From the NCBI RefSeq assembly GCF_900205865.1, contig NZ_LT906662.1, forward strand, positions 1,811,411 to 1,875,410: a stretch of DNA of 64,000 bases, written 5' to 3'. Below the pieces are notes generated by a model. It was not told where the DNA came from. It worked only from the letters and a program-made list of their open reading frames with translations, and ran no database searches. Positions 13,369 through 49,897 of this stretch are shown here, piece after piece; within the stretch, counting starts at the first letter, position 1; every line of letters begins with the position of its first letter. Both the position numbers and the translations under genes were made by a program. The stretch is from Thermoanaerobacterium sp. RBIITD (lineage in GTDB: Bacteria; Bacillota; Thermoanaerobacteria; Thermoanaerobacterales; Thermoanaerobacteraceae).

Positions 13369-14610
13369 GTGGAAGTACTGCAAAAAATACTTGACGCAGG
13401 AGGAAAACTGTATCAGGTTGGCGGTTGTGTTCGTGACAACCTAATGGGCATAAAACCACATGATATAGACTATTGCATAACAGGACTTACAGTAAAAAAA
13501 GTTTTGGAATTGTTTCCTGATGCAGAGATAACAGGCAAAGACTTTCCTGTGTTCAGAATCAATGGTGACGAATATGCTCTAGCACGCTCTGAAAAGAAAA
13601 ATGGTGTCGGATATAAAGGCTTCGAAATATATACGTCTCCTGACATAACAATAGAAGAAGATCTTGCAAGACGTGATCTAACTATAAATGCAATGGCAAG
13701 AGATATGGAAACAGGCAGAATAATAGACCCGTATGGAGGACAAAAAGACTTAAAAAAAGGCATAATAAGAGCAACAACCAAAGCCTTTGCTGAAGATCCG
13801 TTGAGAGTATACCGTGCTGCAAGATTTTCAGCAAAATATAACTTTTATATAGAAACAGATACAATGAAAATGATGCATGAGCTTAAAGACGAACTTAAGA
13901 CACTACCTACCGAAAGAGTTTTTGAGGAAACAAGAAAAGCACTTAACACAGACACACCATCAAGATATTTCAGATCATTAGCACAGGCAGAAGTTTTGGA
14001 TGTGCATTTTAAAGAACTTAATGATTTGCGTGGTATACCGCAGCCTGAAAAATACCATCCTGAAGGAGATGCCTTTGAGCATACAATGCTCGTGTTAGAC
14101 AGAATGGCAAAAGAAACAAAAAGTGAGGAATTAAGATTTTCAGCGTTGGTACATGATCTTGGAAAAGCAACAACTCCAAAAGAAATTCTTCCTCACCATT
14201 TTGGTCACGACAAACGTGGTCCCGAACTTGTGAAAAGTTTTTGTGAGCGTATAAAAGCACCAAAGACATGGGAGAAATGTGGTATCGCTGCTGCGGAATA
14301 TCACATGCAAGGACAGCGTTTCATGGAAATGCGTCCAGGCAAAAAAGTCACTTTTCTTGAAAATATAGATAAAACACCTCTTAAGGCAGATGGGATTGCA
14401 AAAATAATAGACGTAGATACGTCACATAAAGCAAAAACAAAATATATCAAAAAATATTCAGAAAAAATGTTTTCTGAAATAAACGGGAAAACAGTAAGAA
14501 TCAATGCAAAAGGACCAGCATTTGCTGAAAAGCTGCATGAAATGCGTGTACAATGGATAGCAAAAATGGTACAGTCAGAAACAGTACTGCAATGCTACAA
14601 AAACAACTAA
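13369..14610 (+). CDS. cca: CCA tRNA nucleotidyltransferase with HD domain
   Basis: 413 residues starting at GTG 13369 behind GAGGTGAGC. The nucleotidyltransferase core has GGCVRDNLMG and the metal-binding DID, followed by RRDLTINAMA and DPLRVYRAARF (the NTP and tRNA-neck motifs). A C-terminal HD domain shows H-TMLVLDRM and ALVHDLGK. Poly(A) polymerase is the alternative, but length and the HD module fit bacterial CCA-adding enzymes. The enzyme repairs or adds the 3' CCA of tRNA. Its presence on an element that also carries tRNA-Glu and a tRNA-mimicking Y RNA is unusual. Confidence 0.9.
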   Translation: MEVLQKILDAGGKLYQVGGCVRDNLMGIKPHDIDYCITGLTVKKVLELFPDAEITGKDFPVFRINGDEYALARSEKKNGVGYKGFEIYTSPDITIEEDLARRDLTINAMARDMETGRIIDPYGGQKDLKKGIIRATTKAFAEDPLRVYRAARFSAKYNFYIETDTMKMMHELKDELKTLPTERVFEETRKALNTDTPSRYFRSLAQAEVLDVHFKELNDLRGIPQPEKYHPEGDAFEHTMLVLDRMAKETKSEELRFSALVHDLGKATTPKEILPHHFGHDKRGPELVKSFCERIKAPKTWEKCGIAAAEYHMQGQRFMEMRPGKKVTFLENIDKTPLKADGIAKIIDVDTSHKAKTKYIKKYSEKMFSEINGKTVRINAKGPAFAEKLHEMRVQWIAKMVQSETVLQCYKNN

Positions 14611-16337: not shown

Positions 16338-16346
16338 ATATTTTAA

Positions 16347-16421
16347 GGCGGGTTCGTTCATTGGTTAGGATAGTAGGCTTTCAACCTGCTGAAACGGGTT
16401 CGATTCCCGTACCCGCTGCCA
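16347..16421 (+). tRNA. tRNA-Glu (anticodon UUC), CCA encoded
   Basis: Full cloverleaf: acceptor GGCGGGT / ACCCGCT (first pair G-U), D-stem GTTC/GGAT, anticodon stem GTAGG/CCTGC with loop CTTTCAA, and T-arm ACGGG-TTCGATT-CCCGT. Discriminator G and CCA are encoded. The unpaired-looking first pair is a G-U wobble, unusual for tRNA-Glu. Carried on a mobile element next to a giant RNA and downstream of cca. Confidence 0.93.
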
Positions 16422-17484: not shown

Positions 17485-17510
17485 AATTTAAAAAAAAACA
17501 AGGAGGAATT

Positions 17511-17661
17511 ATGATGAGAACAATTTTAGGAAATGCTTTTTCTCTGCAAATGTTAGATTTACAGAGAAAATCTAATGTCGAGGTCACTCCTTTGACGTTG
17601 GATGAGGTTAAAAATCTTTTAAGTGAGGGCTTTGTTTCTGCTGTAGGACATCAAGACACAG
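17511..17661 (+). CDS. AcrIII-1 / DUF1874 ring nuclease, exon 1
   Basis: ATG 17511 (or 17514, better spaced from AGGAGG) opens a protein beginning MRTILGNAFSLQML, the DUF1874/B116 start. Counting from 17511, N8, S11 and H47 (in SAVGHQDT) coincide with the cA4-binding and catalytic positions of the viral ring nuclease SIRV1 gp29. The frame is cut after GHQDT by a group II intron. Joining 17661 to 20376 restores one uninterrupted 108-residue protein. The family cleaves cyclic tetra-adenylate and so switches off type III CRISPR signalling (established for AcrIII-1). Without splicing translation would run about 14 nonsense codons into the intron and stop. Confidence 0.85.
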
Positions 17662-20375
17662 GTGCGCTGCGTTTGCGCGATAATCCTACCCTGATAAGGT
17701 AGGAAAAACGCCAGCATGTCAGAAATGACATGACAACTGACTCATCGAAATCAGAGGTGAAATTCCTCTGCCACACAGAGTTAACGCTGATGAAGCATAT
17801 CAAAGCCAAAGCGGTGTGCGTGTTGAGACTCCTGCTGGCATTAGTATATCGCTATATATTGGTGTCAGAAGCCAGGTAAAGTCGTAGCCTGAAAACCTAA
17901 ACCTTGTAGAAATACAAGGCATGGATAATAATGGTGCGGACATCCGTGACCCATGGAGACGCAAGAAAGGTATACCTGAAGCTCCGTCATGATGTGCCTT
18001 GGAAACAAGGAAACAATGGAAGTCAAATATAATGCTCTGTGTTCATTATATCTGTACAGGCTTGAAATAACCTGTAATAGCCAATGCATAACTGTAACTC
18101 AAACATTGGTGTAAACTTCCCGGAGTAGAGTACCCTCCTAAAGGTCACAATTAAGGATAGATGAGTCGGAACGCAGGAGAGCCTATATGTGGAATGTAGC
18201 GACATAATGAAGCATATAGGAAGTCGGAGGTGTCATAGTAGTAATGATATACCATAACATAAATGGTATTGAGCGAAGGACACCAGACGGTTAGTTCTTG
18301 TAAATAATTCTCACCGCAATCTTGAGAGTCCTTGAAATATAGGTAATGAACCATAAGGAGGCGATACCTTATGCATATAAACAGCAAGGTTGCAAGTGAA
18401 GGACAGCTTAAGGAAAGACTAGACTTAATTTATGCCAGAAGTAAAGAAGGACGATCATTCCATGGACTGTATGAGTTGGCTTTCAATCCAGTAACAATAG
18501 TTACTGCAATTCACAACATTAAGTCCAATAAAGGTTCCTATACACCTGGTGTGGATAAAAACAACATAAACTATTACTTGCAAATGCCATATCAGGAGCT
18601 AATAGAGCTCGTGCAAAGCACAGCTAAAAACTATCAACCAAAACCAGTCAGAAGGATATATATTCCGAAGAAAAATGGCAAAATGAGACCATTAGGTATT
18701 CCTACTATGTTAGACAGGATAATTCAAGAATGTATTCGAATAGTCATTGAGCCTATATGTGAAGCAAAATTCTACCCACACAGTTACGGTTTCAGACCAT
18801 ATAGAGCAACAAAACACGCCATAAAGGATGTTGTAAATAACATTAATTCAGCCAAAAATGATGTACCCAAATATGTAATAGAAGGTGATATTAAAGGCTG
18901 CTTTGACAACATAAATCATCACATCCTGCTAAACAAATGTTATCGCATAGGAATACATGACAAACGGATACTAATGCTAATCAAGCAAATGCTCAAGGCA
19001 GGTTATATAGAATCTGACCTTAAACATATAACAGAAATAGGAACACCCCAAGGCGGCATCATTTCACCATTATTGGCAAATATATATCTAAATAATTTTG
19101 ACTGGATGGTCGGTAGAATGTATCAAGAACCAAAACAACAATGTCAAAATGTGTACACGGACAGAAGAAGGCTTAAGCTACATGGCGTGGTACCTAAATA
19201 CCTAGTCAGATATGCCGATGACTGGATAATAATGACAACAACAGAAAAGGAAGCCAACAGACTGTTAAAATACCTCCGGAAATACTTCAGATACAAACTC
19301 AAATTGGAACTTTCCGAAGAAAAGACAGTTATAACAGACATGACACAAAGATACATTAAATTTTTAGGCTTCCTAATACAGGCAGACTATAAAAGACCTA
19401 CACCAGACAATCCGCATCCAACCAAATTAGTAGGCAAACCCAGACCAGACTTCAAAAAAGTCAAGGAACAAGTCAAAACTATTAATAAAGAAATTAGCAA
19501 ACTAAAAGACATTCCAAAAGAACTGGACAGAGCCATACAAATAGAAAAAATAAACTCCATGATTATAGGCGTAGTGGAGTATTGGAAAACAGGAATAAGC
19601 AGCAATACCTTCAGTTACATTGATGACAAAATAGAACGCTGTGCATGCCGAACATTCCAAAAACTCTATCCCAAAACGTATATGGAGTACAAGATTGAAT
19701 TGGACAAACTCTCAAATAGACCGCAAAGACATCAAGGTTATAAGACTAAAACATTTGCGGTTAAAATTAAAGACCAATACATTGGCATTACTAAAGCCTT
19801 CATCACTCATAGCCAATGGCTAAAATATCCATTCAATCAAAAGATGACCCCATATACAGAAGAAGGCAGAAACTTATACCTAAAACAATTTGATATGAAA
19901 AAGAAACTGCCTTTGAATAGACCACCGCTCTATGATGTAGATATTCTAGTTCAACACAAAAATGACAAACTATATAATTTTGAATACTACATGAATAGAG
20001 AATATGCCTATAATCGAGACAAAGGCAGATGTAGAATATGTGGAAAATGGCTGGAAAAAGGCGACATGGAATGTCATCATATCCAACCGCAACTTAAACC
20101 TGACAAGGCAAATAAGGTACCTAATCTGACATGGCTGTGTGAACAATGCCATCATGTTGTACATGGAAGTCCAATTCCGAACAGCTACACAGACAGACAG
20201 AAATCTAAGATCAATAAATTTAGAGAATTATTGCAAGCAAGCGATAGCGGCGACGCTAAAACTTGTCTCCGTAAAGGCGACTAATCGTTGGAAAGCCGTA
20301 TGAGGCGAAAGTCTCACGTACGGTTTGGAGTGGGGGAAAAGGCAGAGATAACATCAAAGCCTGACCTATCACTAC
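17662..20375 (+). mobile_element. Group II intron 1 in the AcrIII-1 gene
   Basis: Begins GTGCG at 17662 and ends ...CACTAC at 20375. Both edges are defined by comparison with intron 2 and by restoration of the host gene's reading frame and family alignment. Domain V is visible at 20294-20325 (AGCCGTATGAG, GCGAAAGT tetraloop region, CTCACGTACGG). A loop CTGTGTT (18037-18043) between AATG and CATT is complementary to the last exon bases GACACAG, so it is the likely EBS1. Domain IV holds the RT-maturase ORF. The intron is 2,714 bases with intact protein, so probably active for splicing and mobility. Confidence 0.92.
18371..20284 (+). CDS. ltrA: Group II intron reverse transcriptase/maturase with HNH domain
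   Basis: 637 residues. RT domain with the RIYIPKKNGKMRPLGIP start, GTPQGGIISPLLANIYL and the catalytic YADD at 281-284. Then comes the maturase (X) domain, and a C-terminal HNH endonuclease with paired zinc ligands: CRICGKW, ECHHIQP and CEQCHHVVHG. These supply intron RNA splicing, target-strand nicking and cDNA synthesis. AAGGAGG precedes the ATG. About 85-90% similar by eye to the second intron's protein. All catalytic residues are intact. Confidence 0.95.
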   Translation: MHINSKVASEGQLKERLDLIYARSKEGRSFHGLYELAFNPVTIVTAIHNIKSNKGSYTPGVDKNNINYYLQMPYQELIELVQSTAKNYQPKPVRRIYIPKKNGKMRPLGIPTMLDRIIQECIRIVIEPICEAKFYPHSYGFRPYRATKHAIKDVVNNINSAKNDVPKYVIEGDIKGCFDNINHHILLNKCYRIGIHDKRILMLIKQMLKAGYIESDLKHITEIGTPQGGIISPLLANIYLNNFDWMVGRMYQEPKQQCQNVYTDRRRLKLHGVVPKYLVRYADDWIIMTTTEKEANRLLKYLRKYFRYKLKLELSEEKTVITDMTQRYIKFLGFLIQADYKRPTPDNPHPTKLVGKPRPDFKKVKEQVKTINKEISKLKDIPKELDRAIQIEKINSMIIGVVEYWKTGISSNTFSYIDDKIERCACRTFQKLYPKTYMEYKIELDKLSNRPQRHQGYKTKTFAVKIKDQYIGITKAFITHSQWLKYPFNQKMTPYTEEGRNLYLKQFDMKKKLPLNRPPLYDVDILVQHKNDKLYNFEYYMNREYAYNRDKGRCRICGKWLEKGDMECHHIQPQLKPDKANKVPNLTWLCEQCHHVVHGSPIPNSYTDRQKSKINKFRELLQASDSGDAKTCLRKGD

Positions 20376-20551
20376 CAGCAGTCCTTTCGGACATGCTTGG
20401 TCTTGACGTCCCATGCAACCGCATAAATGTTCATCTTACACCAGATGACGTTCTTGTGGTTTCACAGCTTGTCGGCGGAAGGCTGCCTGAAGGCAGTACA
20501 AAGCTGCCTGACGGTTTTTCTTTCCAGTTTGTGAAGGTCAGTATTTTATAA
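20376..20551 (+). CDS. AcrIII-1 / DUF1874 ring nuclease, exon 2
   Basis: Continues exon 1 as AAVLSDMLGLDVPCNRINVH, then DDVLVVSQLVGGRLPEGS and a stop at 20549-20551. R86 and E89 in GRLPEG match the R85/E88 active-site pair of SIRV1 gp29 within one residue, and R66 is also conserved. The alternative intron end at 20372 would insert one extra residue (T-V-P-A) and fits the family less well. On its own the exon has no start codon or ribosome binding site. Confidence 0.85.
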
Positions 20552-20596
20552 GGCACAGCCGATGTGCCTTATTTAAAAATTAAAGGAGAATAAAGA

Positions 20597-20896
20597 ATGT
20601 TTAATAAAATCGAAGAAATCAATCAAGAAAAACTTACTAATCATTTAAACAAAAAAGTAAAAAAATCAAAACAAAGAAAACAAAAACTTGCAAGTAAATA
20701 CAAACACTTACAATCAAATGTTCCATGGTGGATACAAAGCAATAAACCATGGAAAAGAAATTATATTTCTTCTGGCAAATATAGATTTTATGCCAGAAGA
20801 AAAGCACGCAGATGGTACAATAATACAAATAAAGCAGATGAAATTAATAACACGTCGTATAAGAAAATATACGATGTTTGGTGGACAATTTTTTAA
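20597..20896 (+). CDS. Hypothetical basic protein
   Basis: 99 residues behind AAAGGAG, strongly basic in the first 35 residues (KKVKKSKQRKQKLASKYK) with several Trp/Arg clusters later (RARRWYNN-like). Probably nucleic-acid binding; no family recognised. An overlapping frame from 20688 lacks a ribosome binding site and was not chosen. Confidence 0.5.
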   Translation: MFNKIEEINQEKLTNHLNKKVKKSKQRKQKLASKYKHLQSNVPWWIQSNKPWKRNYISSGKYRFYARRKARRWYNNTNKADEINNTSYKKIYDVWWTIF

Positions 20897-20916
20897 AAAG
20901 TTAAAGGAGGATTTTT

Positions 20917-21636
20917 ATGAGTTATGACATAATCTATGACAGGCGTTTTATAAAAGTAGATGATTTGTACGTTCCAATGATCGAAATAGGTTCCAACAAT
21001 ACTTTTGAGATTTCTGCTTCAGGTCGTGAAATACCTGAAAAGTACTGGATGGAACTTGTTTGTGACAAAAACAAATATTTGTACAGCAAAGAAGAAATTT
21101 TGCAAACTGCAAAAGAATTAGATGAATGTGGTGGAATTTATAAGTCACGATACAGATCTTTTGAGAAAGATGAATTTGTAAAATATATCATGTCTGGCAT
21201 CAAAAATGCTAAATCTCTTGAAATTTATATTAAATGGGGAAATAACTTAATTCTGCGAACATCTGACAATATAAAATATCCACAAACAACAAAAGAATTA
21301 AAAAACGAATTAATTTTTGCTGCATTAGCAAGTACAAAAATTAATTTATATTTTTCAGAACGTGATTTTAAAATAGGCAATGTCCTAACAACAAGAAATT
21401 TGTCAGAATATCCCTATGTTATCAAAGATGACTATTATTTGACACGCATATATGGCCGGAATACATGGTGGGATGATGACATCAACAATGCTCTTAAATT
21501 TAAAACAAAAAAAGAAGCAGAAAAATTCTTAAAAAAGCACAAAAAAGATCCTGTTCAGTATGTAATAATTCATTATTTTGATGAACAACAAAACAAACAA
21601 GGCAACTCAAGATATTATCAATTTTCACTATTCTAA
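20917..21636 (+). CDS. Hypothetical protein
   Basis: 239 residues, AAAGGAGG seven bases before the ATG. Starts with beta-strands (MSYDIIYDRRFIKVDDLYVPM), a helical middle, and ends DEQQNKQGNSRYYQFSLF. No motif recognised. Followed by a terminator (AAGGCTT/AAGCCTT with T6, 21652-21677). Confidence 0.6.
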   Translation: MSYDIIYDRRFIKVDDLYVPMIEIGSNNTFEISASGREIPEKYWMELVCDKNKYLYSKEEILQTAKELDECGGIYKSRYRSFEKDEFVKYIMSGIKNAKSLEIYIKWGNNLILRTSDNIKYPQTTKELKNELIFAALASTKINLYFSERDFKIGNVLTTRNLSEYPYVIKDDYYLTRIYGRNTWWDDDINNALKFKTKKEAEKFLKKHKKDPVQYVIIHYFDEQQNKQGNSRYYQFSLF

Positions 21637-24314: not shown

Positions 24315-25643
24315 ATGACACTTCCATTGCAATTACAGGCAGCACGTCTAAAACTGGCAAAGGAGAGACCGTATCTTGCAAGCGCCTTATGGGCACTTCA
24401 GCCAGTGGAATTTAAAAAAGGCACGATGGCGGTTGATATGTACTGGCGACTTTATTATGATCCTAAAGTCGTTAATACATGGACGATAGACGAACTTGCT
24501 GGAGTACTTTATCACGAAATAAGTCACCTCTTGAGGCAACACAATGTCCGTATGAAAAACTTTCCTAAAAACATAGCAAACATTGCAGCAGATATTGAAG
24601 TGAACAACGATCTAATAGATGAAGGAGTAACTATGCCAAAAGGCATTATAACACGTGAACTTTTTGGTTTGCCTGATAACTTGCTTGCGGAAGAATATGC
24701 TGTTTTGCTTATGCAAATAAAACAAGAACTACGAAAAAAAGACCAGCAAAACCAAGACCAGCAAGATCAACAAAACTTGCAAGGTCAGCAAGGACAAGAC
24801 CAGCAAAGTTTACAAGATCAGCAAGAACAAGATTCACAAGAACAAGATCAACAAAACCTACAGGACAAACAAGACAAAGATCAAAAGTCTCCACTTCCAG
24901 GTGCAGGACGTTGCGGTTCATGTGCAACAGGACAACTAGAAGAATGGGAACTGCCTGAGGGAAAAGGAGAACAGACAGGCATTACAGAAACAGAAGCAGA
25001 ACTTATACGCAGAAGCGTTGCAGTTGCAATTCAAGAAGCATGCAGGCAACGTGGTAGCGTACCTGCTCATCTAAAAAGATGGGCAGACAAGAAATTAAAA
25101 CCTAAAATAAACTGGAGAAAAGAACTTGCCACTGCGATAAAAAACACTATATCAAACGTGGCAGGCTGCATTGATTATTCATATAGCAAACCTTCAAGGC
25201 GTCCATATAAGGATATTATAATGCCGTCTTTAAGGCAGCCTTCTGTGAGTGTAGCAGTTGTCATAGATACGTCAGGAAGTGTATCTGACAACATGCTTTC
25301 ACAGGCACTTGCAGAAGTTGACGGAATATTAAAGTCGGTTGGTCTAAAAGATGGCGTTCATTATATTGCCTGTGATGCGGAAGTGCATATCAGTAAAAAG
25401 ATCACTGATATTAAACATGCAGAACTTGAAGGCGGTGGAGGAACAGACATGGGAGTTGGCATTAAAGCTGCTATGAGTCTTAAGCCGAGACCAAACGTAT
25501 GTATAGTCCTAACAGATGGATATACTCCGTGGCCAGATACACCTCCACAAAAAATGAAGGTCATTGCAGGTTTGCTGTCAGAAGAAAATGCAACATGGCA
25601 AGTACCTAAATGGGCTAAAAAAGTTATTATAAGGGCAGACTAA
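24315..25643 (+). CDS. VWA-domain putative metallopeptidase (DUF2201-like)
   Basis: 442 residues from ATG 24315 (AAAGGAGG upstream; an earlier ATG at 24288 lacks a site). The N-terminal domain carries a zincin motif HEISHLLRQH near residue 73. A Gln/Asp-rich low-complexity linker (about 140-195) follows. The C-terminal VWA-like domain has MIDAS residues in VIDTSGSVS, then GGGGTDMG and LTDGY. This architecture is typically coupled to MoxR-type ATPases, as here. The linker's tandem QDQQ codons are repetitive DNA and may vary in length. Substrate unknown. Confidence 0.85.
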   Translation: MTLPLQLQAARLKLAKERPYLASALWALQPVEFKKGTMAVDMYWRLYYDPKVVNTWTIDELAGVLYHEISHLLRQHNVRMKNFPKNIANIAADIEVNNDLIDEGVTMPKGIITRELFGLPDNLLAEEYAVLLMQIKQELRKKDQQNQDQQDQQNLQGQQGQDQQSLQDQQEQDSQEQDQQNLQDKQDKDQKSPLPGAGRCGSCATGQLEEWELPEGKGEQTGITETEAELIRRSVAVAIQEACRQRGSVPAHLKRWADKKLKPKINWRKELATAIKNTISNVAGCIDYSYSKPSRRPYKDIIMPSLRQPSVSVAVVIDTSGSVSDNMLSQALAEVDGILKSVGLKDGVHYIACDAEVHISKKITDIKHAELEGGGGTDMGVGIKAAMSLKPRPNVCIVLTDGYTPWPDTPPQKMKVIAGLLSEENATWQVPKWAKKVIIRAD

Positions 25644-26312: not shown

Positions 26313-26593
26313 TGAAAACAACAATTCTTTGTCTTGGTGAAGTTCATGAAATAGGCATTAATAAAAAAGGTCAGTTAATTTTTTACAATCACACAAAAGA
26401 AGAACTTAAGGCTGAAGGTGCATTAGAAAAGCTTGGAGGAACGCCTTGCAAATGCTATATGATATTACAAAACTGGCGTAATGGTGGCGATCTGCCAACA
26501 GAATTACTAATCGAATATGACAAAACAGAAGCTAAAAGAATTCAACGTTATATAAAAAGGAGGAAACAAGAAAATGCAAACCTTTGTAATTAA
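26312..26593 (+). CDS. 'KGQLIF' family small protein 2
   Basis: 93 residues with HEIGINKKGQLIFYNHTKEE and TPCKCYM, followed by a basic C-terminus (KRIQRYIKRRKQE). Start overlaps the previous stop; its 3' end overlaps the next gene by 20 bases. The tight overlap of two paralogues indicates they are translated together. Confidence 0.6.
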   Translation: MKTTILCLGEVHEIGINKKGQLIFYNHTKEELKAEGALEKLGGTPCKCYMILQNWRNGGDLPTELLIEYDKTEAKRIQRYIKRRKQENANLCN

Positions 26594-27320: not shown

Positions 27321-27333
27321 TGTTAATTTTTCC

Positions 27334-27363
27334 TTGACATTTAAAAAATTTTGATCCTATAAT
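27334..27363 (+). promoter_or_regulatory. Promoter of ncRNA copy A
   Basis: TTGACA (27334-27339), 18 bases, TATAAT (27358-27363). Both hexamers perfect and identically spaced in copies B and C. Confidence 0.85.
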
Positions 27364-27369
27364 AAGTTA

Positions 27370-27647
27370 GATTTCAAGGTTAACCTATCATAAAAAGCAC
27401 GATCCTCCATATTATCCGTTCCACTCTCACTGCGGAGGAGGAAATCGAAAGAGTGGTTGATAGTGTACTTGACGGCATCATATCCCTCTGCCGTAAAAAG
27501 CGGATATGTATATTCGGAGGAAGGCATAAATGTGTACCGCTTTGCTTGATGATTTGGTACACAGTGATAAAAAGTGGAATATTGATCTAGGAAGAAAGGT
27601 ATGTGCATGTATTACCAGAATTTTCAAGGTATGCGCATACCTTTTTA
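27370..27647 (+). ncRNA. Three-copy structured ncRNA family, copy A
   Basis: About 278 nt from promoter to terminator GGTATGCGCATACC-T5 (27628-27646). Helices: CTATCA (27385-27390) with TGATAG (27458-27463) encloses CCACTCT/AGAGTGG, whose loop GGAGGAGG can pair with the upstream ATCCTCC. ACGGCA (27472-27477)/TGCCGT (27489-27494) forms a pseudoknot, because CATATCC (27479-27485) in its loop pairs with GGATATG (27502-27508). GTGTACC/GGTACAC follows. Copies B and C preserve these pairs with compensatory changes. Copy A lacks the GCATG/CATGC hairpin present in B. I recognise no known RNA family. A minus-strand reading frame inside it is a shadow of the structure. Confidence 0.85.
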
Positions 27648-27650
27648 TAT

Positions 27651-33735: not shown

Positions 33736-33980
33736 AGGATTTATCAAAATCCTCAAAAAATCTAACAAAGACTTTATATAGACTGCAAAAATTTATATAC
33801 ATATCAAAAATATTTATGTTTCAGGTTAAAAACAAACGATTACATATATATAAAAAATATAAATATAAATGGCAAAATATAATATAATAACATCTCTAGA
33901 GAAATTTTTTTCGACTCTTTTTTGCTTGTCATTGCAGGCTTAACCGCCTGCTTATTTTTTGCTTTCTAAAAAATATTTCC

Positions 33981-34010
33981 TTGACAAAATAATTTTTTTG
34001 AACATATAAT
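33981..34010 (+). promoter_or_regulatory. Promoter of ncRNA copy B
   Basis: TTGACA (33981-33986), 18 bases, TATAAT (34005-34010). Confidence 0.85.
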
Positions 34011-34016
34011 AAGTTA

Positions 34017-34312
34017 GATTTCAAGGTTAACCTATCGTAAAAAGTACGATCCTCTATATATTCCGTTCCACTCTCGTTGCGGAGGAGGAAATCGAAAGAG
34101 TGGTTGATAGTGTACTTGAACGGTATGATACCCACTGCCGTAATATTAGGTATCGGCATGTTAAGACATGCTATATTTGGAGGAGAGCATAAATGTGTAC
34201 CTGTCTGACCTGATGTTTTGGTACACAGTGATAAAAGGTGAAATACTAGTCTAGAAAGAAAGGTATGCGTACATACTTCCAGAATTTCACAGGTATGCGC
34301 ATACCTTTTTAT
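34017..34312 (+). ncRNA. Three-copy structured ncRNA family, copy B
   Basis: About 296 nt. CTATCG (34032-34037) pairs with TGATAG (34105-34110). The pseudoknot pair is GATACC (34127-34132) with GGTATC (34149-34154), which replaces ATATCC/GGATAT of copy A by compensatory change. ACGG/CCGT flank it. An extra hairpin GCATG/CATGC (34157-34172) is present. GTGTACC/GGTACAC and the terminator palindrome (34292-34305, then T5) are conserved. The most constant stretches are the CCACTCT/AGAGTGG arm with its GGAGGAGG loop and the GAAAGAAAGGTATG segment. Confidence 0.85.
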
Positions 34313-34345
34313 ATTAAAAAAAAAAGGAAGAAGGAAGGTGCTAAT

Positions 34346-40783: not shown

Positions 40784-40800
40784 TAAGCCTGCTTTTTTAT
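40774..40800 (+). terminator. Intrinsic terminator
   Basis: AGCAGGC/GCCTGCT followed by six T, overlapping the helicase stop. Confidence 0.85.
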
Positions 40801-40807
40801 TTTTTCC

Positions 40808-40837
40808 TTGACATTTAAAGATTTTTGAGCTTATAAT
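40808..40837 (+). promoter_or_regulatory. Promoter of ncRNA copy C
   Basis: TTGACA (40808-40813), 18 bases, TATAAT (40832-40837). Confidence 0.85.
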
Positions 40838-40843
40838 GAATTA

Positions 40844-41146
40844 GAATTTCAAGGCAACCTAGCATAAAAAGTACGATCCTCCATATTATCCGTACCACTC
40901 TCACTGCGGAGGAGGAAATCGAAAGAGTGGTTGCTAGCGAACTTGACGGTATGATACCCACTGCCGTAATAATTAGGTATCTGTGCATATTTTAAAGACA
41001 TGCTATATTTTGGAGGAAGGCATAAATGTGTACCACTGCCTGACCTGATGTTTTGGTACACAGTGATTTAAAAGGTGGATATTGTTCAGAAAGAAAGGTA
41101 TGCGTGTATACTTCCAGAATTTTCAAGGTATGCGCATACCTTTTTA
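40844..41146 (+). ncRNA. Three-copy structured ncRNA family, copy C
   Basis: About 303 nt. Helix CTAGCA (40859-40864) with TGCTAG (40932-40937) shows a clean double substitution (T-A to G-C) against copies A and B. The pseudoknot pair is GATACC/GGTATC as in copy B. The GCAT...ATGC hairpin, GTGTACC/GGTACAC and terminator palindrome (41127-41140) are kept. Located directly after the helicase and before a run of small genes. The copies are 6.6 and 6.8 kb apart. Confidence 0.85.
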
Positions 41147-41174
41147 TATTTTTTAAAAGAAAGGAGAATTTTTT

Positions 41175-43511: not shown

Positions 43512-43967
43512 ATGCGAGAGATAAAGTTTAGAGTGTGGAGTAAAAAAGAAAAAAAGATGTATTACGGCGATAGACAACATGAACCTAATATGATTGGATT
43601 TGACGGAAAAATATTTGCAACAGGTTCAACTGGTGTTATGTGTAACTATGGCTGTAGTGCAGATTATATAAATTGGTGTAATCCAGAAGAAGATTATGAA
43701 TTAATGGAATACACAGGCTTTAAAGACAAATATGGGAAGGAAGTTTTTGAAGGAGATATATTGCGCTGCAAAATATGGAATCCTATGTCATGCCAACGTG
43801 ATTGTGTATTAGAAGTGATAGTTGTATGGAATCAATCTGTTGGCAGTTGGAAATTCCAAGATATAAGACATAATTTTGCCGATCTCTCATGGATTTTTAT
43901 AGATGGCGTTAAAATAATTGGCAATATTTACGAAAATCCTGAACTTTTAAAGGAGGAATTGAAATGA
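43512..43967 (+). CDS. YopX-family protein
   Basis: 151 residues from ATG 43512 (AAGGAGG upstream). MREIKFRVWSKKEKKMYYG, YTGFKDKYGKEVFEGDIL and DGVKIIGNIYENPELL are the family's three landmarks. YopX proteins occur in SP-beta-like and many other phages and plasmids, function unknown. Overlaps the next start by four bases. Confidence 0.9.
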   Translation: MREIKFRVWSKKEKKMYYGDRQHEPNMIGFDGKIFATGSTGVMCNYGCSADYINWCNPEEDYELMEYTGFKDKYGKEVFEGDILRCKIWNPMSCQRDCVLEVIVVWNQSVGSWKFQDIRHNFADLSWIFIDGVKIIGNIYENPELLKEELK

Positions 43968-44428
43968 AGAAATATAGAGTAAATTATTATTTAGGTAACA
44001 AAGAATGGACGGAAACAATGTCGGAAGGACAATTAAGAAACTTCGAAAAAAGGCTTGAAAATGGTGCTGAAGAAAAGATTATATCAGTTACAGAAATTCA
44101 CGAACTGCCTTCAGACTTACTTCAAGCATTTCAAGACTTCAAAAAAGCTGCATATAGGTTTGCTGAAATGCTTGAAAAATACGATTCAAATAATAATACT
44201 CACGACTTGTACGCTACTAAATATCCGTTCGTCAAGTCTTTTTCTGATGTTGCAGACGATATAAATGACTGGTATGAAGCAGTCATCAATCAAGAAACTA
44301 CAACGTCACGAAATTTCAAGGAACTTCAAGGCGAAATATTAAATGCCTGTCCAGGTTATCCAGCAGTAATCAAACTAAATAATAGTAAAGTCCTGACTAC
44401 AAGTCCTGTCAGGTACATTTATAGCATC
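43964..44428 (+). CDS. Hypothetical protein split by intron 2, exon 1
   Basis: 155 codons from ATG 43964 up to the intron. Middle domain (LPSDLLQAFQDFKKAAYRF, TKYPFVKSFSDVADDINDWY) is shared with the small protein at 29377. After splicing, the frame continues exactly (IYSI then YDNGRATVLYTK) to give 184 residues. Without splicing only ten intron-derived residues are added before a stop. Function unknown. Confidence 0.75.
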
Positions 44429-47141
44429 GTGCGCTGCGTTTGCGCGATAATCTTGCCCTGATAAGGTAAGAAAAACGCCAACATGTCAGAAATGACATGA
44501 TAACTAGCTCATCAAAATCAGAGGTGAAATTCCTCTGCCACACAGAGTTAACGCTAATGAGGCAAATCAAAGCCGAAACGGTGTGCGTGTTGAGACTCCT
44601 GCTGGCAACAGTGTGTCGCTACACACTATTGTCAGAAGCCAGGTAAAGTCGTAACCTGAAAACCTAAACCTTACATCATGTAAGGCATGGATAATAATGG
44701 TGCGGACATCCGTGACCTATGGAGACGCAAGAAAGGTATGATTAAAGCTCCGACAAAATGTGCCATGGAAACGTGGAAACGATGGAAGCTTTGTATAATG
44801 TTGATACTTCATTATACAAGTACAAGCATGAAATAGCCTGTAAGAGCCAATGAATAACTGTAACTCAAACATTGGTGTGAGCTTCCCGGAGTAAAGTACC
44901 CTCCTAAAGGTCACATTTAAGGATAGATGAGCTGGAACGCAGGAGAGCCTACATGTGGAATGTAGCGACATGATGAAGCATGTAGGAAGTCGGAGGTGTC
45001 ATAGTAGTAATGATGTATCATAACACAAATGATACTGAACGAAGGACACCAGACGGTTAGTTCTTGCAAATAATTCTCACCGCAATCTTGAAAGTCCTTG
45101 AAATATAGGTAATGAACCATAAGGAGGTGTTGCCTTATGCATATAAACAACAAGATTGCAAGTGAAGGACAGCTTAAAGAAAGGCTTGATTTAATTTACG
45201 CTAAAAGTAAAGAAGGAAGAAGCTTTCATGGACTTTATGAATTGGCATTTAATCCTATAACGATAGTCACAGCCATACACAACATCAAAGCCAACAAAGG
45301 TTCTAGCACTCCCGGTGTGGATAAAAACAACATAAACTATTACTTGCAAATGCCATATCAGGAACTCATAGAACTTGTGCAAAACACAGCTAAAAACTAC
45401 CAGCCACAACCAGTCAGAAGGATATATATTCCTAAAAAGAATGGCAAGAAGAGACCGCTGGGTATTCCTACCATGTTAGACAGAATAATTCAGGAATGTA
45501 TCCACATAGTCATAGAACCTGTTTGTGAGGCAAAATTTTATCCTCACAGTTATGGTTTTAGACCTTATCGTGCTACCAAACATGCAATAGCTGATATCAT
45601 TAATAACATCAACAAGGCCAAAAAGGATGTACCTAAATATGCAATAGAAGGCGATATCAAAGGTTGCTTTGACAACATCAACCATCGCATATTATTAAAC
45701 AAATGCTATCGCATAGGTATACATGATAAACGAATATTGATGCTAATTAAACAAATGCTCAAGGCTGGTTATATAGAAACAGACCTTAAACACCTAACAG
45801 AACTAGGAACGCCACAAGGTGGTATTATATCACCAATCTTAGCGAATATATATCTAAACAATTTTGACTGGACCATTGGTAGAATGTATCAGGAACCAAA
45901 GCAACAATATCAAAGACTAAACCATGATAGAGCAAGACTTAAGAATCAGGGCACAATACCAAAGTACCTAGTCAGATACGCTGACGATTGGATAATAATG
46001 ACAACGACTGAAAAAGAAGCCAACAGACTGTTAAAGTATCTCCGGAAATACTTTAAGCATAAGCTTAAACTTGAACTTTCCGAAGAAAAGACGATCATAA
46101 CGGATATGACACAAAAATATGTCAAATTTTTAGGCTTCCTTATACAGGCGGACTATAAGCGGCCATCTCCGGACAATCCACATCCTACCAAGCTCGTAGG
46201 TAAATCAAGACCTGACTTCAAGAAAGTCAAAGAGCAGGTCAAAATAATCAATAAGGAGATACGTAAATTGAAAGATGTACCTAAAGAGCTTGACAGAGCC
46301 ATCCAAATTGAGAAGGTTAACTCTATGATTATAGGCATGGCAGAATATTGGAAAACAGGAATATGCAGCAACACTTATCAATATATCGACAATAAAATAT
46401 ATCGCTGTGCATTCCGAACTTTCCAAAAGCTCTATCCTAAAACGTATATGGAACATCAAGTTGAACTGGAAAAATTGGCAAACAGACCGCAGAGACATCA
46501 AGGCTACAAGACCAAAACATTTGCGGTCAAAGTTAAAGACCAGTACATTGGCATCACCAAAACATTTATCACTCATAGCCAGTGGACAAAATATCCGTTC
46601 AACCAAAAGATGACGCCATATACGGAAGAAGGCAGAAACCTGTATTTAAAGCAGTTTAAAAAGAAAGAGAAAGTACCTTTGGATAGACCGCCACTATACG
46701 ATATAAAGACTCTAATACACCACAAAAATAATAAACTATATAATTTTGAATATTTTATGAATAGAGAATACGCCTATAATCGTGATAAAGGCAAATGCAG
46801 GATATGCGGAAAATGGCTGGAAAAATGCAACATGGAATGTCATCATATCCAACCACAACTAAAATCTGATAAGGTAAACAAGGTGCCTAACCTAGCATGG
46901 TTGTGCGAACAATGCCATCATATTGTACATGGAAGTCCAATTCCAAGCAACTATACGGATAGACAGAAAGTGAAAATCAATAAATTCAGAGAATTATTGC
47001 AAGCAGGTAATAGTGGCGACACTAACGCCTGTCCCCGTAAAGGCGACTAATCGTTGGAAAGCCGTATGAGGCGAAAGTCTCACGTACGGTTTGGAGTGGG
47101 GGAAAAGGCAAAGATAACTTCAAAGCCTTACCTATCACTAC
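44429..47141 (+). mobile_element. Group II intron 2
   Basis: 2,713 bases from GTGCG to CACTAC, related to intron 1 over its whole length. The proposed EBS1 loop reads GATACTT (44803-44809) between AATG and CATT, and pairs with exon end TAGCATC with five pairs around one A-C mismatch. That loop differs from intron 1 exactly where the target differs, which supports its role and shows retargeting. Domain V at 47060-47091 is identical to intron 1. The D6 branch region differs by two bases. Confidence 0.92.
45137..47050 (+). CDS. ltrA: Group II intron reverse transcriptase/maturase with HNH domain
   Basis: 637 residues, same length as the first intron's protein. RT core with GTPQGGIISPILANIYL and YADD at 281-284, maturase region, and a C-terminal HNH (CRICGKW, ECHHIQP, CEQCHHIVHG) are intact. 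Substitutions against copy 1 are scattered and mostly conservative, with many silent changes. So the two introns diverged for some time and are both maintained, rather than being a very recent duplication. Confidence 0.95.
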   Translation: MHINNKIASEGQLKERLDLIYAKSKEGRSFHGLYELAFNPITIVTAIHNIKANKGSSTPGVDKNNINYYLQMPYQELIELVQNTAKNYQPQPVRRIYIPKKNGKKRPLGIPTMLDRIIQECIHIVIEPVCEAKFYPHSYGFRPYRATKHAIADIINNINKAKKDVPKYAIEGDIKGCFDNINHRILLNKCYRIGIHDKRILMLIKQMLKAGYIETDLKHLTELGTPQGGIISPILANIYLNNFDWTIGRMYQEPKQQYQRLNHDRARLKNQGTIPKYLVRYADDWIIMTTTEKEANRLLKYLRKYFKHKLKLELSEEKTIITDMTQKYVKFLGFLIQADYKRPSPDNPHPTKLVGKSRPDFKKVKEQVKIINKEIRKLKDVPKELDRAIQIEKVNSMIIGMAEYWKTGICSNTYQYIDNKIYRCAFRTFQKLYPKTYMEHQVELEKLANRPQRHQGYKTKTFAVKVKDQYIGITKTFITHSQWTKYPFNQKMTPYTEEGRNLYLKQFKKKEKVPLDRPPLYDIKTLIHHKNNKLYNFEYFMNREYAYNRDKGKCRICGKWLEKCNMECHHIQPQLKSDKVNKVPNLAWLCEQCHHIVHGSPIPSNYTDRQKVKINKFRELLQAGNSGDTNACPRKGD

Positions 47142-47231
47142 TATGACAATGGACGGGCAACAGTACTGTACACGAAAAATTCCGTGTATAAAATTGGAAA
47201 AGGAGGAGGTAATGATGGTTCAGTTAAATAA
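47142..47231 (+). CDS. Hypothetical protein split by intron 2, exon 2
   Basis: 29 codons then TAA 47229-47231: YDNGRATVLYTKNSVYKIGK, ending in a Gly/Asn-rich tail. In frame with exon 1. Its last 20 bases overlap the next gene's start, and the ribosome binding site of that gene encodes the Gly-Gly-Gly tail. Confidence 0.7.
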   Translation, partial: YDNGRATVLYTKNSVYKIGKGGGNDGSVK

Positions 47232-48270: not shown

Positions 48271-48807
48271 ATGTTAAATATAATGTATTTTTCAGGAAAA
48301 GTCAAGGATCTACAAAAATTTACAAGTCTCTTAACAAACGTTAAAGGTAAACTAATATGCTGTGATATTGACAACACGCTTGCTGACATCAATACACAAT
48401 TGTTAAAGGCAGGATATAATATTTCTCAATATCCCAATCCTGTACTTAATGAGGATTTTTGGACGTCTTATGAAGGTCTTGACATACTTATTAGAGCAAA
48501 AAAAATTAAAAATACATCAAAAATTTTAGATGTTTTTAATGGACTTGGCGCAGATGTGTTTTTTGCAACCAGCAGAAACATAAGATTAAGAGAACTTACA
48601 AGGAAGTGGATCGAAAAGCAAGGCATATACAACAAACATGCAGTTTACTTCACTGCCTCAAAACACATTCTTGAGGCTGACGTTTATCTGGAAGATGATC
48701 CTCAACAAATATCAAAACTCCTTTCTATAGGTAAGCCTGTTCTGATACCGTCATGGCAGTATAATCAAGGCTTTGACAGTGAAAATGCTATCTATTTCAA
48801 TATATAG
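48271..48807 (+). CDS. HAD-superfamily 5'-nucleotidase-like protein
   Basis: 178 residues. Catalytic motif I CCDIDNTLAD near residue 32 (DxDxT). Motif II is FATSR near 101, and motif IV is YLEDDP near 138. These fit the NT5C/phage nucleotidase group of HAD phosphatases, which act on (deoxy)nucleoside monophosphates. Start at ATG 48271. AAAGGAG lies somewhat far (13 bases), and an ATG between (48263) opens a four-codon reading. Confidence 0.75.
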   Translation: MLNIMYFSGKVKDLQKFTSLLTNVKGKLICCDIDNTLADINTQLLKAGYNISQYPNPVLNEDFWTSYEGLDILIRAKKIKNTSKILDVFNGLGADVFFATSRNIRLRELTRKWIEKQGIYNKHAVYFTASKHILEADVYLEDDPQQISKLLSIGKPVLIPSWQYNQGFDSENAIYFNI

Positions 48808-48823: not shown

Positions 48824-49897
48824 ATGTGCGATTATAGAGATCCACGTCTGTCAATTTTAAATGTTGCTCAAAAATCAGGCATAGTAATTTTAAGACAAGT
48901 ATCAAACGAGGAATTTATGGCAAGATGTCCGTTTTGTGGCGATTCAGAAAAAAATCCAAAACACGGACATCTTATGCTTAACATAGAGAAAGATGCATAC
49001 CACTGCACGAGATGCGGTGAAAAAGGATTTGCAATAGGACTTTATGCACGACTACATCGAATAAATAATAGTGAAGCGTTTAAAGAACTTATGAACATGA
49101 TACCTGAAACAATACCTAAAATTGAAACTAAAAAAATGCCACAAAGCCCTATTGCAAGCATTAATGAACGTGACAAAGTATATAGGGCATTTTTGGATAA
49201 GTTAACTCTTAAAGGCGAACATTTACAGAACCTTATCCGCAGAGGACTATCGTGGGAAGAAATTGGCAGAAATCTATACAAGTCAATACCAACAATTCCT
49301 CAGGAACGCTTAAGAATATGCAATGAACTGTTGCAAGAAGGATTAAACCTCAATGGCATACCAGGCTTCTTTCAAGTCCAGAAAGAAAATCAAACGTACT
49401 GGGATTTTTACTCTGACAACGGCTTTTTCATACCTGTACGTGACATTCAAGGACGTATTCAAGGTATGCAGATACGTCTTGATGATGACCATGAACGAAA
49501 ATATGTGTGGTTTTCGTCACGTGGAAAATCGAGTGGAACTGGTGCACATGCATGGATAGGCGTACATGGAGTACCTTCAAAAACTGTATTAGTTACTGAA
49601 GGCCCATTAAAAGCTGATATTGCACATTTTTTAAGTCGCTTTACGTTTGTGTCAGTTGCAGGCGTAGACGCAACAAAAGGCATTGAACAAGTTTTGAAAG
49701 AACTTGATACTAAACGTGTCTTTATTGCATATGATATGGACTTAAAAAGCAATAAGAACGTACAAAAGGCTAAAGAAAGGCTTGAAAAAAAGCTTATACA
49801 GGCAGGTTTTGAGGTGCATACAAAGACGTGGGATGAGCGTTTAGGAAAAGGCATTGACGATTATTTGCTTTGGAAAAAACGCCAAAAAGTGGTATAG
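48824..49897 (+). CDS. DnaG-like primase (CHC2 zinc finger + Toprim)
   Basis: 357 residues from ATG 48824 (AAAGGAG upstream). N-terminal zinc finger CPFCGDSEKNPKHGH ... YHCTRCGEKG (residues ~28-60). A central region follows, then Toprim with VTEGPLKAD near 260 and AYDMD near 308 (E...DxD metal site), ending GKGIDDYLLW. It would lay primers for element DNA replication. It directly precedes an SF2 helicase, together a plausible replication module; no initiator protein is identifiable. Confidence 0.85.
   Translation: MCDYRDPRLSILNVAQKSGIVILRQVSNEEFMARCPFCGDSEKNPKHGHLMLNIEKDAYHCTRCGEKGFAIGLYARLHRINNSEAFKELMNMIPETIPKIETKKMPQSPIASINERDKVYRAFLDKLTLKGEHLQNLIRRGLSWEEIGRNLYKSIPTIPQERLRICNELLQEGLNLNGIPGFFQVQKENQTYWDFYSDNGFFIPVRDIQGRIQGMQIRLDDDHERKYVWFSSRGKSSGTGAHAWIGVHGVPSKTVLVTEGPLKADIAHFLSRFTFVSVAGVDATKGIEQVLKELDTKRVFIAYDMDLKSNKNVQKAKERLEKKLIQAGFEVHTKTWDERLGKGIDDYLLWKKRQKVV

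What the first reader, a model, noticed from the sequence alone, without database searches (positions are those of the whole stretch)
17511..20551. Predicted AcrIII-1 cA4 ring nuclease split by a group II intron right after its catalytic histidine
Seen: exon 1 ends with GHQDT (H47), exon 2 starts AAVLSDMLG. Spliced, the 108-residue protein has N8, S11, H47, R66 and the R86/E89 pair that correspond to the active site of SIRV1 gp29. Known: DUF1874 proteins are viral ring nucleases that suppress type III CRISPR. Inference: the intron interrupts the gene at its most conserved segment, so anti-CRISPR activity depends on splicing and hence on intron maturase.
Basis: partly seen in the sequence, partly recalled or inferred. 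Interest (0 to 1): 0.88.

Follow-up and report, generated by a model that had tools for sequence, protein, structure and literature searches.

The report
Anti-CRISPR gene split by retrohoming intron
A mobile DNA island in a Thermoanaerobacterium chromosome carries a predicted anti-CRISPR enzyme gene that is cut in two by a self-splicing, self-copying RNA element whose guide sequences read the very codons of the enzyme's catalytic motif, so the enzyme should be made only if the element splices itself out.

Summary
Confirmed, and sharpened. A DUF1874 (AcrIII-1-type cA4 ring nuclease) gene is split after nt 17661 by a 2714-nt group II intron. Only the joined 108-aa protein passes the Pfam cut-off (54.4 bits; halves 22.3 and 19.9). 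The orthologous island of T. butyriciformans has the gene uninterrupted, and DNA similarity breaks exactly at 17661|20376. In nine of ten aligned intron copies the guides (EBS1/EBS2) pair with their own exons at 105 of 108 positions (36-53 when slid; the tenth, a relic, pairs 5 of 12). In DUF1874 pairing is 12/12 Watson-Crick plus EBS3-IBS3, reading the codons of the catalytic motif G46-H47-Q48-D49-T50-A51. D5, D6, a bulged branch A and an intact RT/maturase/HNH ORF are present. The host carries type III-A, III-C and III-D CRISPR genes, CARF effectors, and 5 of 133 spacers matching the island, all antisense to its genes: a cA4 ring nuclease would have a job. Corrections: the island resembles a plasmid (pMU3262) more than a phage; the interrupted block is one of several equally conserved ones; maturase dependence is inferred. 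Both parts are known families; I found no report of the combination. Splicing, enzyme activity and anti-CRISPR effect are untested.

The parts
17511..17661 (+). exon 1 of DUF1874/AcrIII-1-like gene (codons 1-50 and first nt of codon 51; contains catalytic His47)
20376..20551 (+). exon 2 of DUF1874/AcrIII-1-like gene (rest of codon 51 to stop; R66, R86, E89)
   Evidence: exact empty-site breakpoint in T. butyriciformans
17662..20375 (+). group II intron (2714 nt, GTGCG...AC), called i1
   Evidence: Rfam RF02004 and RF00029; further copies in the same genome; empty site
18371..20284 (+). intron-encoded protein, 637 aa: reverse transcriptase (RYADD), maturase X domain, HNH
   Evidence: PF00078, PF08388, PF01844; TIGR04416 331 bits over cut-off 300; PDB LtrA match
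17648..17653 (+). IBS2 (ACATCA): wobble of Gly46, codon of His47, first two nt of Gln48
   Evidence: pairs 6/6 with EBS2
17656..17661 (+). IBS1 (ACACAG): last two nt of Asp49, Thr50, first nt of Ala51
   Evidence: pairs 6/6 with EBS1
17990..17995 (+). EBS2 (TGATGT) in the 5' part of the intron
   Evidence: covariation with exons across copies
18037..18042 (+). EBS1 (CTGTGT) in the loop of a visible hairpin in the 5' part of the intron
   Evidence: covariation with exons across copies
18128..18128 (+). EBS3 (G), pairs with exon-2 first base C20376
   Evidence: varies with exon +1 in other copies; relic G003 excepted
20293..20326 (+). domain V hairpin (catalytic)
   Evidence: RF00029; fold of D5-D6, z = -3.67
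20329..20373 (+). domain VI; bulged branch-point A at 20368, 7 nt before the 3' splice site
44429..47141 (+). second copy of the same intron family (i2, 84% identical, ORF 45137-47050), in another island gene
   Evidence: empty site at 44428|47142 in T. butyriciformans, with one base of alignment overlap
43964..44428 (+). exon 1 of the gene interrupted by i2 (function unknown; joined 184 aa)
   Evidence: joined protein 79% identical over 182 residues to the uninterrupted T. butyriciformans protein
47142..47231 (+). exon 2 of the gene interrupted by i2 (end calculated from the joined 184-aa ORF)
25364..25401 (+). sequence complementary to a host CRISPR spacer (33/38)
26516..26553 (+). sequence complementary to a host CRISPR spacer (33/38)
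48398..48439 (+). sequence complementary to two overlapping host CRISPR spacers (30/37 and 31/36)
49668..49704 (+). sequence complementary to a host CRISPR spacer (33/37)

Best explanation
A mobile group II intron has inserted, in the sense orientation, into the DUF1874 (AcrIII-1-type cA4 ring nuclease) gene of a chromosomally integrated, plasmid-related island. It recognises its site by base pairing: EBS2, EBS1 and EBS3 of the intron pair with the codons of the enzyme's catalytic motif G46-H47-Q48-D49-T50-A51, a site the enzyme can hardly mutate away without losing activity. The transcript is expected to splice (ribozyme plus intron-encoded maturase), rejoining codon 51 and giving an intact 108-aa ring nuclease that destroys cA4 made by the host's type III CRISPR systems, which hold spacers complementary to island transcripts. 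Unspliced RNA gives only a 63-aa product that should be inactive. Shown here by sequence: gene identity, exact intron boundaries and empty site, guide pairing and its covariation, intact ribozyme landmarks and maturase ORF, host type III genes and antisense spacers. Inferred: splicing in vivo, cA4 cleavage, and that this suppresses immunity. By analogy with Ll.LtrB in a conjugative relaxase gene (PMC6003770), the intron should also lower expression of its host gene.
For: Joined protein is DUF1874 (54.4 bits vs 22.3/19.9 for halves; PDB sequence relatives 2j6b, 2x4i, 6scf, 2j85). The Foldseek top hit for the AlphaFold model of the uninterrupted 88% identical orthologue is 6scf AcrIII-1; all 16 matches with E <= 0.001 are DUF1874-family entries, Csx1-Crn2 included. 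Empty sites for both introns in T. butyriciformans. Guide pairing in 9 of 10 aligned copies (relic G003 dropped): 105 of 108 at the predicted offset vs 36-53 when slid by 1-6; exon swapping never reached the observed score in 20,000 shuffles (max 94); with the relic kept, 110 of 120, shuffle max 101. DUF1874 site 12/12 Watson-Crick. RF00029 and RF02004; D5-D6 fold with bulged A. Maturase TIGR04416 over cut-off. An essentially identical intron (2712 of 2713 aligned bases, two small indels) in another species of the genus at an unrelated site shows recent mobility. Host: Cas10/Csm1 660 bits, CARF-HEPN, Cas10c, Cas10d, CARF-PDDEXK; 5 of 133 spacers match the island at 81-89%, null maximum 73% in 665 shuffles, all five antisense to the island's + strand genes, none in the flanking chromosome.
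Against: No transcript, splicing or enzyme data. dN/dS (0.101/0.282 against T. butyriciformans) reflects mostly history before the insertion, so it does not prove the split gene still works. The five spacer matches are imperfect (4-7 mismatches), which could by itself explain tolerance of the island. The genus copy with the same guides (G004) sits antisense in another gene, with its maturase frame broken (longest open stretch 385 aa), in a genome with no DUF1874 match, so the intron can be found without this gene. cA4 is the expected but untested messenger of these host effectors; the Cas10d match covers only the C-terminal half of its profile. Relic copy G003 does not fit the pairing rule (5 of 12).
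Confidence: 0.75

Rival explanations
1. Plain insertional inactivation: the intron entered by retrohoming but no longer splices usefully in this host, so the DUF1874 gene is dead and the island persists because the spacers match it poorly.
For: No splicing data exist; spacer matches carry 4-7 mismatches; a prophage helicase split by a putative group II intron was judged likely non-functional by its authors (PMC11318856, passages read).
Against: Sense orientation, intact ribozyme landmarks and maturase, perfect guide-exon pairing, no frameshift or stop in either exon.
Confidence: 0.17
2. The spliced DUF1874 protein works but is not chiefly an anti-CRISPR: it is a moderating ring nuclease (Crn2-like) or has another nucleotide substrate.
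For: DUF1874 members include putative cellular Crn2 proteins associated with type III CRISPR (PMC7293037, passages read). A PADLOC Csx16 profile also matches (55.6 bits).
Against: The gene lies in a mobile island, and its relatives in a Thermoanaerobacterium plasmid and phage; it is far from the host cas loci that I found; the host holds spacers against the island.
Confidence: 0.12
3. The intron is a conditional switch: splicing efficiency, or re-cutting of the spliced mRNA by the intron ribonucleoprotein through the same EBS-IBS pairing, sets how much anti-CRISPR is made. (This overlaps with the best explanation and is not exclusive of it.)
For: For Ll.LtrB the spliced intron reopens the ligated relaxase mRNA through EBS-IBS pairing, and two other introns (EcI5, BhI1) also lowered mRNA of their host constructs (PMC6003770, abstract and passages). 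Here the pairing is the maximum possible, 12/12.
Against: Nothing measured in this organism; no sign that the intron was kept for regulation: it is absent in T. butyriciformans and from the other DUF1874 genes found.
Confidence: 0.25

Closest known systems
AcrIII-1 / SIRV1 gp29 (DUF1874, PF08960; PDB 6scf, 2x4i)
   Same: Family profile, fold (of the uninterrupted orthologue), catalytic His47 and the aligned N8, S11, R66, R86, E89 positions
   Different: Gene is interrupted by a group II intron inside the catalytic motif; carried by a plasmid-like island of a thermophilic clostridium rather than an archaeal virus; activity untested
Ll.LtrB in the ltrB relaxase gene of Lactococcus pRS01 (PMC6003770: abstract and passages seen), and Ef.PcfG in Enterococcus (PMC5072309: abstract seen)
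   Same: Mobile group II intron with an LtrA-like protein in a gene of a mobile element (LtrA is the best PDB hit of the protein here); function of the host gene depends on splicing (here inferred)
   Different: Host gene is a predicted anti-CRISPR, not a relaxase; an EBS3-type base appears to pair with exon 2, as in IIB-type introns (subclass not formally tested; this class rule is recalled), whereas Ll.LtrB is IIA
DUF1874 genes of Thermoanaerobacterium plasmid pMU3262 and phage THSA-485A
   Same: 78.5% and 52% identical proteins in the same genus
   Different: Both uninterrupted; homing site pairable at 12 of 12 (10 Watson-Crick) and 10 of 12 (9 Watson-Crick) when G-U is allowed
LM41 prophage 6 helicase split by a putative group II intron (PMC11318856, passages seen)
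   Same: Phage or mobile gene split by a group II intron
   Different: Authors infer loss of function; not an anti-CRISPR
Intron-rich crAss-like phages (PMC7886860, passages seen)
   Same: Conserved phage genes interrupted by self-splicing introns
   Different: Group I introns and inteins in core genes; in the passages seen, anti-CRISPRs are discussed separately and not as interrupted genes

Membership tests
AcrIII-1 / DUF1874 ring nuclease | match to PF08960 over the curated cut-off | tested here: met
   54.4 bits vs 26, joined exons
AcrIII-1 / DUF1874 ring nuclease | catalytic histidine and aligned N/S/R/R/E residues | tested here: met
   alignment to 2x4i and 6scf; H47A of SIRV1 gp29 reported catalytically inactive (PMC7213978, passages). 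The roles of the Arg/Glu pair are recalled, not looked up
AcrIII-1 / DUF1874 ring nuclease | AcrIII-1 fold | tested here: met
   tested on the uninterrupted 88% identical orthologue L010, not on the spliced protein: pLDDT 90.8; 6scf top hit E 2.3e-7, TM 0.75
AcrIII-1 / DUF1874 ring nuclease | cleaves cA4 and suppresses type III immunity | not testable with these tools
   needs biochemistry
AcrIII-1 / DUF1874 ring nuclease | encoded by a virus or mobile element facing type III systems | tested here: met
   island with mobile-element genes; host III-A, III-C, III-D genes and 5 antisense spacers
bacterial group II intron | GUGYG 5' end, AY 3' end, D5 and D6 with bulged A | tested here: met
   (end motifs recalled)
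bacterial group II intron | RT plus maturase domains in an intron-encoded protein | tested here: met
bacterial group II intron | EBS-IBS pairing with the interrupted exon | tested here: met
   12/12 in DUF1874; 105/108 over nine copies, relic G003 excluded (110/120 with it)
bacterial group II intron | splicing and retrohoming activity | not testable with these tools
   a near-identical copy in a second species and empty sites imply recent mobility
prophage (carrier) | relatedness to phage genomes or structural genes | tested here: inconclusive
   one phage record in two near-mode searches, by 53 nt that fall in domain V of each intron; 10 ORFs scanned against PHROGs: 8 had matches (DNA metabolism, anti-restriction, other, unknown), 2 none, no capsid or tail protein; five of 17 further pMU3262 plasmid proteins examined have relatives in the window; IMG/VR lists the T. 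butyriciformans copy as viral

The most novel reading that the evidence does not exclude
A retroelement disarms a counter-defence: the intron RNA, whose guides are fully complementary to the codons of the ring nuclease's catalytic motif, throttles the anti-CRISPR by delayed splicing and by re-cutting the ligated mRNA, and can spread to other DUF1874 genes because that site cannot mutate without killing the enzyme. The intron would then be a parasite of an anti-CRISPR that indirectly restores type III immunity against the island.
Probability: 0.2. Interest if true: 0.8.

Novelty: new variant of a known kind. Interest (0 to 1): 0.62.

Why it matters
It links two arms races in one gene: CRISPR versus anti-CRISPR, and retroelement versus its host gene. 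If splicing is needed, a mobile element's defence against type III immunity is conditional on a parasite's ribozyme. It also gives a natural system, with an intron-less allele in a sister species and the host's own type III genes at hand, to test whether group II introns restrain mobile elements through their anti-defence genes as Ll.LtrB does through a relaxase gene.

Tried and rejected
Assembly artefact or chance ORFs: rejected by the two empty sites and by guide covariation. A DUF1874-specific intron lineage: not supported; copies of the family sit in unrelated sites, and no second interrupted DUF1874 was found: the match runs through the intron position in one piece in 49 of 49 phage records, 4 of 4 viral-contig loci, 9 of 9 genome-contig loci and 6 of 6 plasmid records. 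In 398 genomes of the phylum, this one included, all 10 matches over the cut-off were continuous; of 11 weaker matches (E up to 0.05) only ours (exon 2, model 49-87) begins at the intron site, and our exon 1 was not even listed, so split genes are easily missed by such scans. Intron protein in viral contigs: no relative confirmed. Phage origin of the island: no close phage record. CRISPR targeting of pMU3262: 0 spacers at 79% or more in the 23 kb examined of 110.9 kb. The CRISPR-like repeat in the first 5 kb of the window is not part of an array. Print check: searches 'group II intron' + 'anti-CRISPR' (13 papers listed), 'group II intron' + 'ring nuclease' (4), 'anti-CRISPR' + intron + splicing + phage + 'interrupted by' (4 papers, 3 listed) and two or more of DUF1874 / ring nuclease / AcrIII-1 (25, 20 listed) showed no title or abstract start on an intron-split anti-CRISPR. 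Of these I looked into four by passages; the others were seen as listings only, and only open-licence papers are held. A search for Thermoanaerobacterium + group II intron (16 papers, 10 listed) showed no title on it.
Full report
OBSERVATION. The reading frame described is real. Exon 1 (17511-17661) and exon 2 (20376-20551) join in frame to a 108-residue ORF; without splicing translation stops after 63 residues. The joined protein matches PF08960 at 54.4 bits against a cut-off of 26, while the halves alone reach 22.3 and 19.9; accordingly a whole-genome search with the family at E <= 0.001 finds nothing in this genome. Sequence relatives with solved structures are AFV3-109 (2j6b), SIRV1 ORF114 (2x4i), AcrIII-1 (6scf) and STIV B116 (2j85). 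In the printed alignments N8, S11, H47, R66, R86 and E89 sit on the corresponding residues of 2x4i, and the 6scf chain has alanine in the histidine column. H47A of SIRV1 gp29 is described as catalytically inactive (PMC7213978, passages read).

FOLD. The spliced protein is not read from continuous DNA and was not handed to the structure tool; the uninterrupted 88% identical orthologue (L010; identity) was modelled with ten homologues from fetched loci: mean pLDDT 90.8. The 16 PDB matches with E <= 0.001 are all this family: 6scf (best, E 2.3e-7, TM 0.75), 2j6b, 2x4i, 2j85, and Csx1-Crn2 (8y7g, 8y7f).

INTRON. Rfam gives D5-D6 (RF00029, 63.8 bits, 20291-20375) and D1-D4 (RF02004, 45 bits). The 3' part folds with a domain V hairpin and a domain VI with bulged A20368, 7 nt before the 3' splice site (z -3.67 against shuffles). 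The ORF at 18371-20284 carries RVT_1, GIIM and HNH domains and passes TIGR04416; the best PDB match is LtrA. Similar copies lie elsewhere in the same genome: 44429-47141 in this window and 2555664-2558376, both near full length at 84% with a full-length maturase frame, a 785-nt ORF-less derivative, and a relic.

EMPTY SITE. The nearest relative is in T. butyriciformans DSM 101588 (NZ_JAGGLT010000002, L049; G007 in the unnamed set has a contig of the same 139,361 bases). The host of the window is therefore inferred to be a Thermoanaerobacterium species, since G007 is of the same genus. There the chromosomal flank and the island align with the window, but the intron is missing: segments 17490-17661 and 20376-20920 abut without a base lost or gained. 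The second intron likewise has its empty site at 44428|47142 (one base of overlap between the two segments), and its joined host protein is 79% identical to the uninterrupted one.

GUIDES. Ten copies, four from this genome and six from other genomes, were aligned at their 5' ends. At one fixed pair of places, six bases (EBS2) pair with exon positions -14 to -9 and six (EBS1) with -6 to -1. Leaving out one decayed copy (G003, which pairs 5 of 12), 105 of 108 positions pair (G-U allowed); sliding the exon by 1-6 nt gives 36-53; swapping exons among copies reached at most 94 in 20,000 shuffles. With the relic kept the figures are 110 of 120 and at most 101. Some copies are related (i2 and i3 share guides; i1 and the G004 copy share guides), so these are not ten independent cases, and the loops were picked by inspecting this same alignment; the slid and swapped controls guard against that only in part. 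A third position (G18128) pairs with the first base of exon 2 and varies in step with it: direct reads for i1, i2, i3, i4, G004 (G-U) and G011; for G009 and G021 after allowing for a final intron base left outside the alignment; G012 has no 3' end in the data; G003 fails. In DUF1874 all 12 guide pairs are Watson-Crick. IBS2 is the wobble base of Gly46, the His47 codon and two bases of Gln48; IBS1 runs from Asp49 to the first base of Ala51. The intron thus recognises the catalytic motif itself. Among 15 uninterrupted DUF1874 sequences examined (T. butyriciformans counted twice, as L010 and L049), the number of pairable positions with G-U allowed is 12 in L010, L049, L013 and pMU3262 (all Watson-Crick only in the first two), 11 in L012, 7 to 10 in nine others, and 8 in L057, where my motif placement is doubtful.

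MOBILITY. A second species of the genus (G004) has the same intron with one mismatch in 2713 aligned bases plus two small indels that break the maturase frame, in a site with IBS2 identical and IBS1 pairing through three G-U pairs, antisense to a gene with a weak, below-cut-off Cas10/Cmr2 palm match. G004 has no DUF1874 match. So DUF1874 is the better-matching, probably cognate, site and the G004 site an ectopic one; the direction of movement is inference.

CARRIER. Genes scanned in the island include a Gp3-like recombination directionality factor, ArdC anti-restriction, a DUF6094 methyltransferase, SNF2/ResIII helicases and a DUF3854/CHC2 primase. From the 23-kb stretch of plasmid pMU3262 I compared 18 of 25 annotated proteins: besides DUF1874, five of 17 match the window (28-51% identity; two of them, a CCA-adding-type protein at 13372-14559 and a CoiA-like protein at 57223-57774, lie outside the 16.4-51.5 kb stretch that I treat as the island). 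Near-mode searches found one phage record only, through 53 nt that fall in domain V of each intron. IMG/VR lists the T. butyriciformans copy as a viral contig; I regard plasmid or integrative element as likelier.

HOST IMMUNITY. The genome encodes type III-A (Cas10/Csm1, 660 bits to TIGR02578; Csm3-5; Cas6; a CARF-HEPN protein with TIGR02221) next to type I-like genes (the latter read from ORFs, not scanned), type III-C (Cas10c, Cmr1, Cmr4, Cmr6) and type III-D (Cas10d, C-terminal half of the profile only; Cas5) genes and a CARF-PDDEXK protein. From arrays in the stretches fetched I extracted 133 spacers (the pattern search counted 150 repeat-like sites in the genome, of which its list showed the first). 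Five match the window at 81-89% over their full length; the maximum among 665 shuffled spacers, and among the 133 spacers read backwards, was 73%, and the sixth-best real spacer is also at 73%. All five fall in the island and read antisense to its + strand genes, as RNA targeting requires; none at 79% or more falls in the flanking chromosome of the window; six match the T. butyriciformans island, again all antisense. By eye, no target flank resembles the 8-nt repeat tag. Five of five on one strand is only weak evidence by itself, since spacers 56 and 115 hit the same spot.

MECHANISM. Most likely the pre-mRNA splices and the joined enzyme removes cA4 produced when the type III complexes see island transcripts. 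Shown: gene, junctions, guides, host systems, spacers. Inferred: splicing, catalysis, protection. The best precedent is Ll.LtrB in a conjugative relaxase gene, where the intron lowers host mRNA through the same kind of EBS-IBS pairing and reduces conjugation 3- to 4-fold (PMC6003770, abstract and passages). I expect the same throttle here.

NOVELTY. Both parts belong to known families; the kind of arrangement (group II intron in a mobile-element gene) is known. An anti-CRISPR as the interrupted gene, with guides that read its catalytic codons, I have not found in print in the four searches named, which cover open-licence papers only.

Noticed in passing
27325-27650, 33970-34314, 40795-41149: Three copies of a conserved ~330-nt module (79-86% alike): sigma-70-like promoter (TTGACA/TATAAT), a leader with long invariant stretches, and a terminator-like hairpin plus T-run; also present in the T. 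butyriciformans island; nothing convincing in Rfam in a permissive search of the first copy; the only full-length copies in this genome lie in the island. Candidate leader RNA or antitermination element of the island's operons.
   Followed up: partly
44429-47141: Second intron of the same family with an intact 637-aa ORF in an island gene of unknown function; empty site in T. butyriciformans.
   Followed up: yes
L048 (G000:C1:2189061-2189845): 785-nt ORF-less derivative of the intron with EBS2 pairing 6/6 and EBS1 5/6; would need a maturase in trans.
   Followed up: partly
L045 7826-10540 (G004): Near-identical copy of the DUF1874 intron lies antisense in a frame-broken gene with a weak Cas10/Cmr2 palm match at a contig end.
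   Followed up: partly
1993-2124: Orphan CRISPR-like repeat (RF01315) with two degenerate neighbours, no array.
   Followed up: no
16347-16421: tRNA-Glu directly before the island, a possible integration site; the T. butyriciformans alignment stops at 16342, just before it.
   Followed up: no
13369-14610: CCA-adding/poly(A) polymerase-like gene, absent at this place in T. butyriciformans, whose relative on pMU3262 lies directly next to DUF1874.
   Followed up: no
17511-20551 (joined exons): The joined DUF1874 protein matches PADLOC's Csx16 profile (55.6 bits), hinting that this profile mixes or relates ring-nuclease families.
   Followed up: no
L089 and L090 (G000:C1:2724000-2763800): Host carries type III-C and III-D Cas10 genes within about 20 kb, with a 9-repeat CRISPR array and a CARF-PDDEXK effector between them.
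   Followed up: partly
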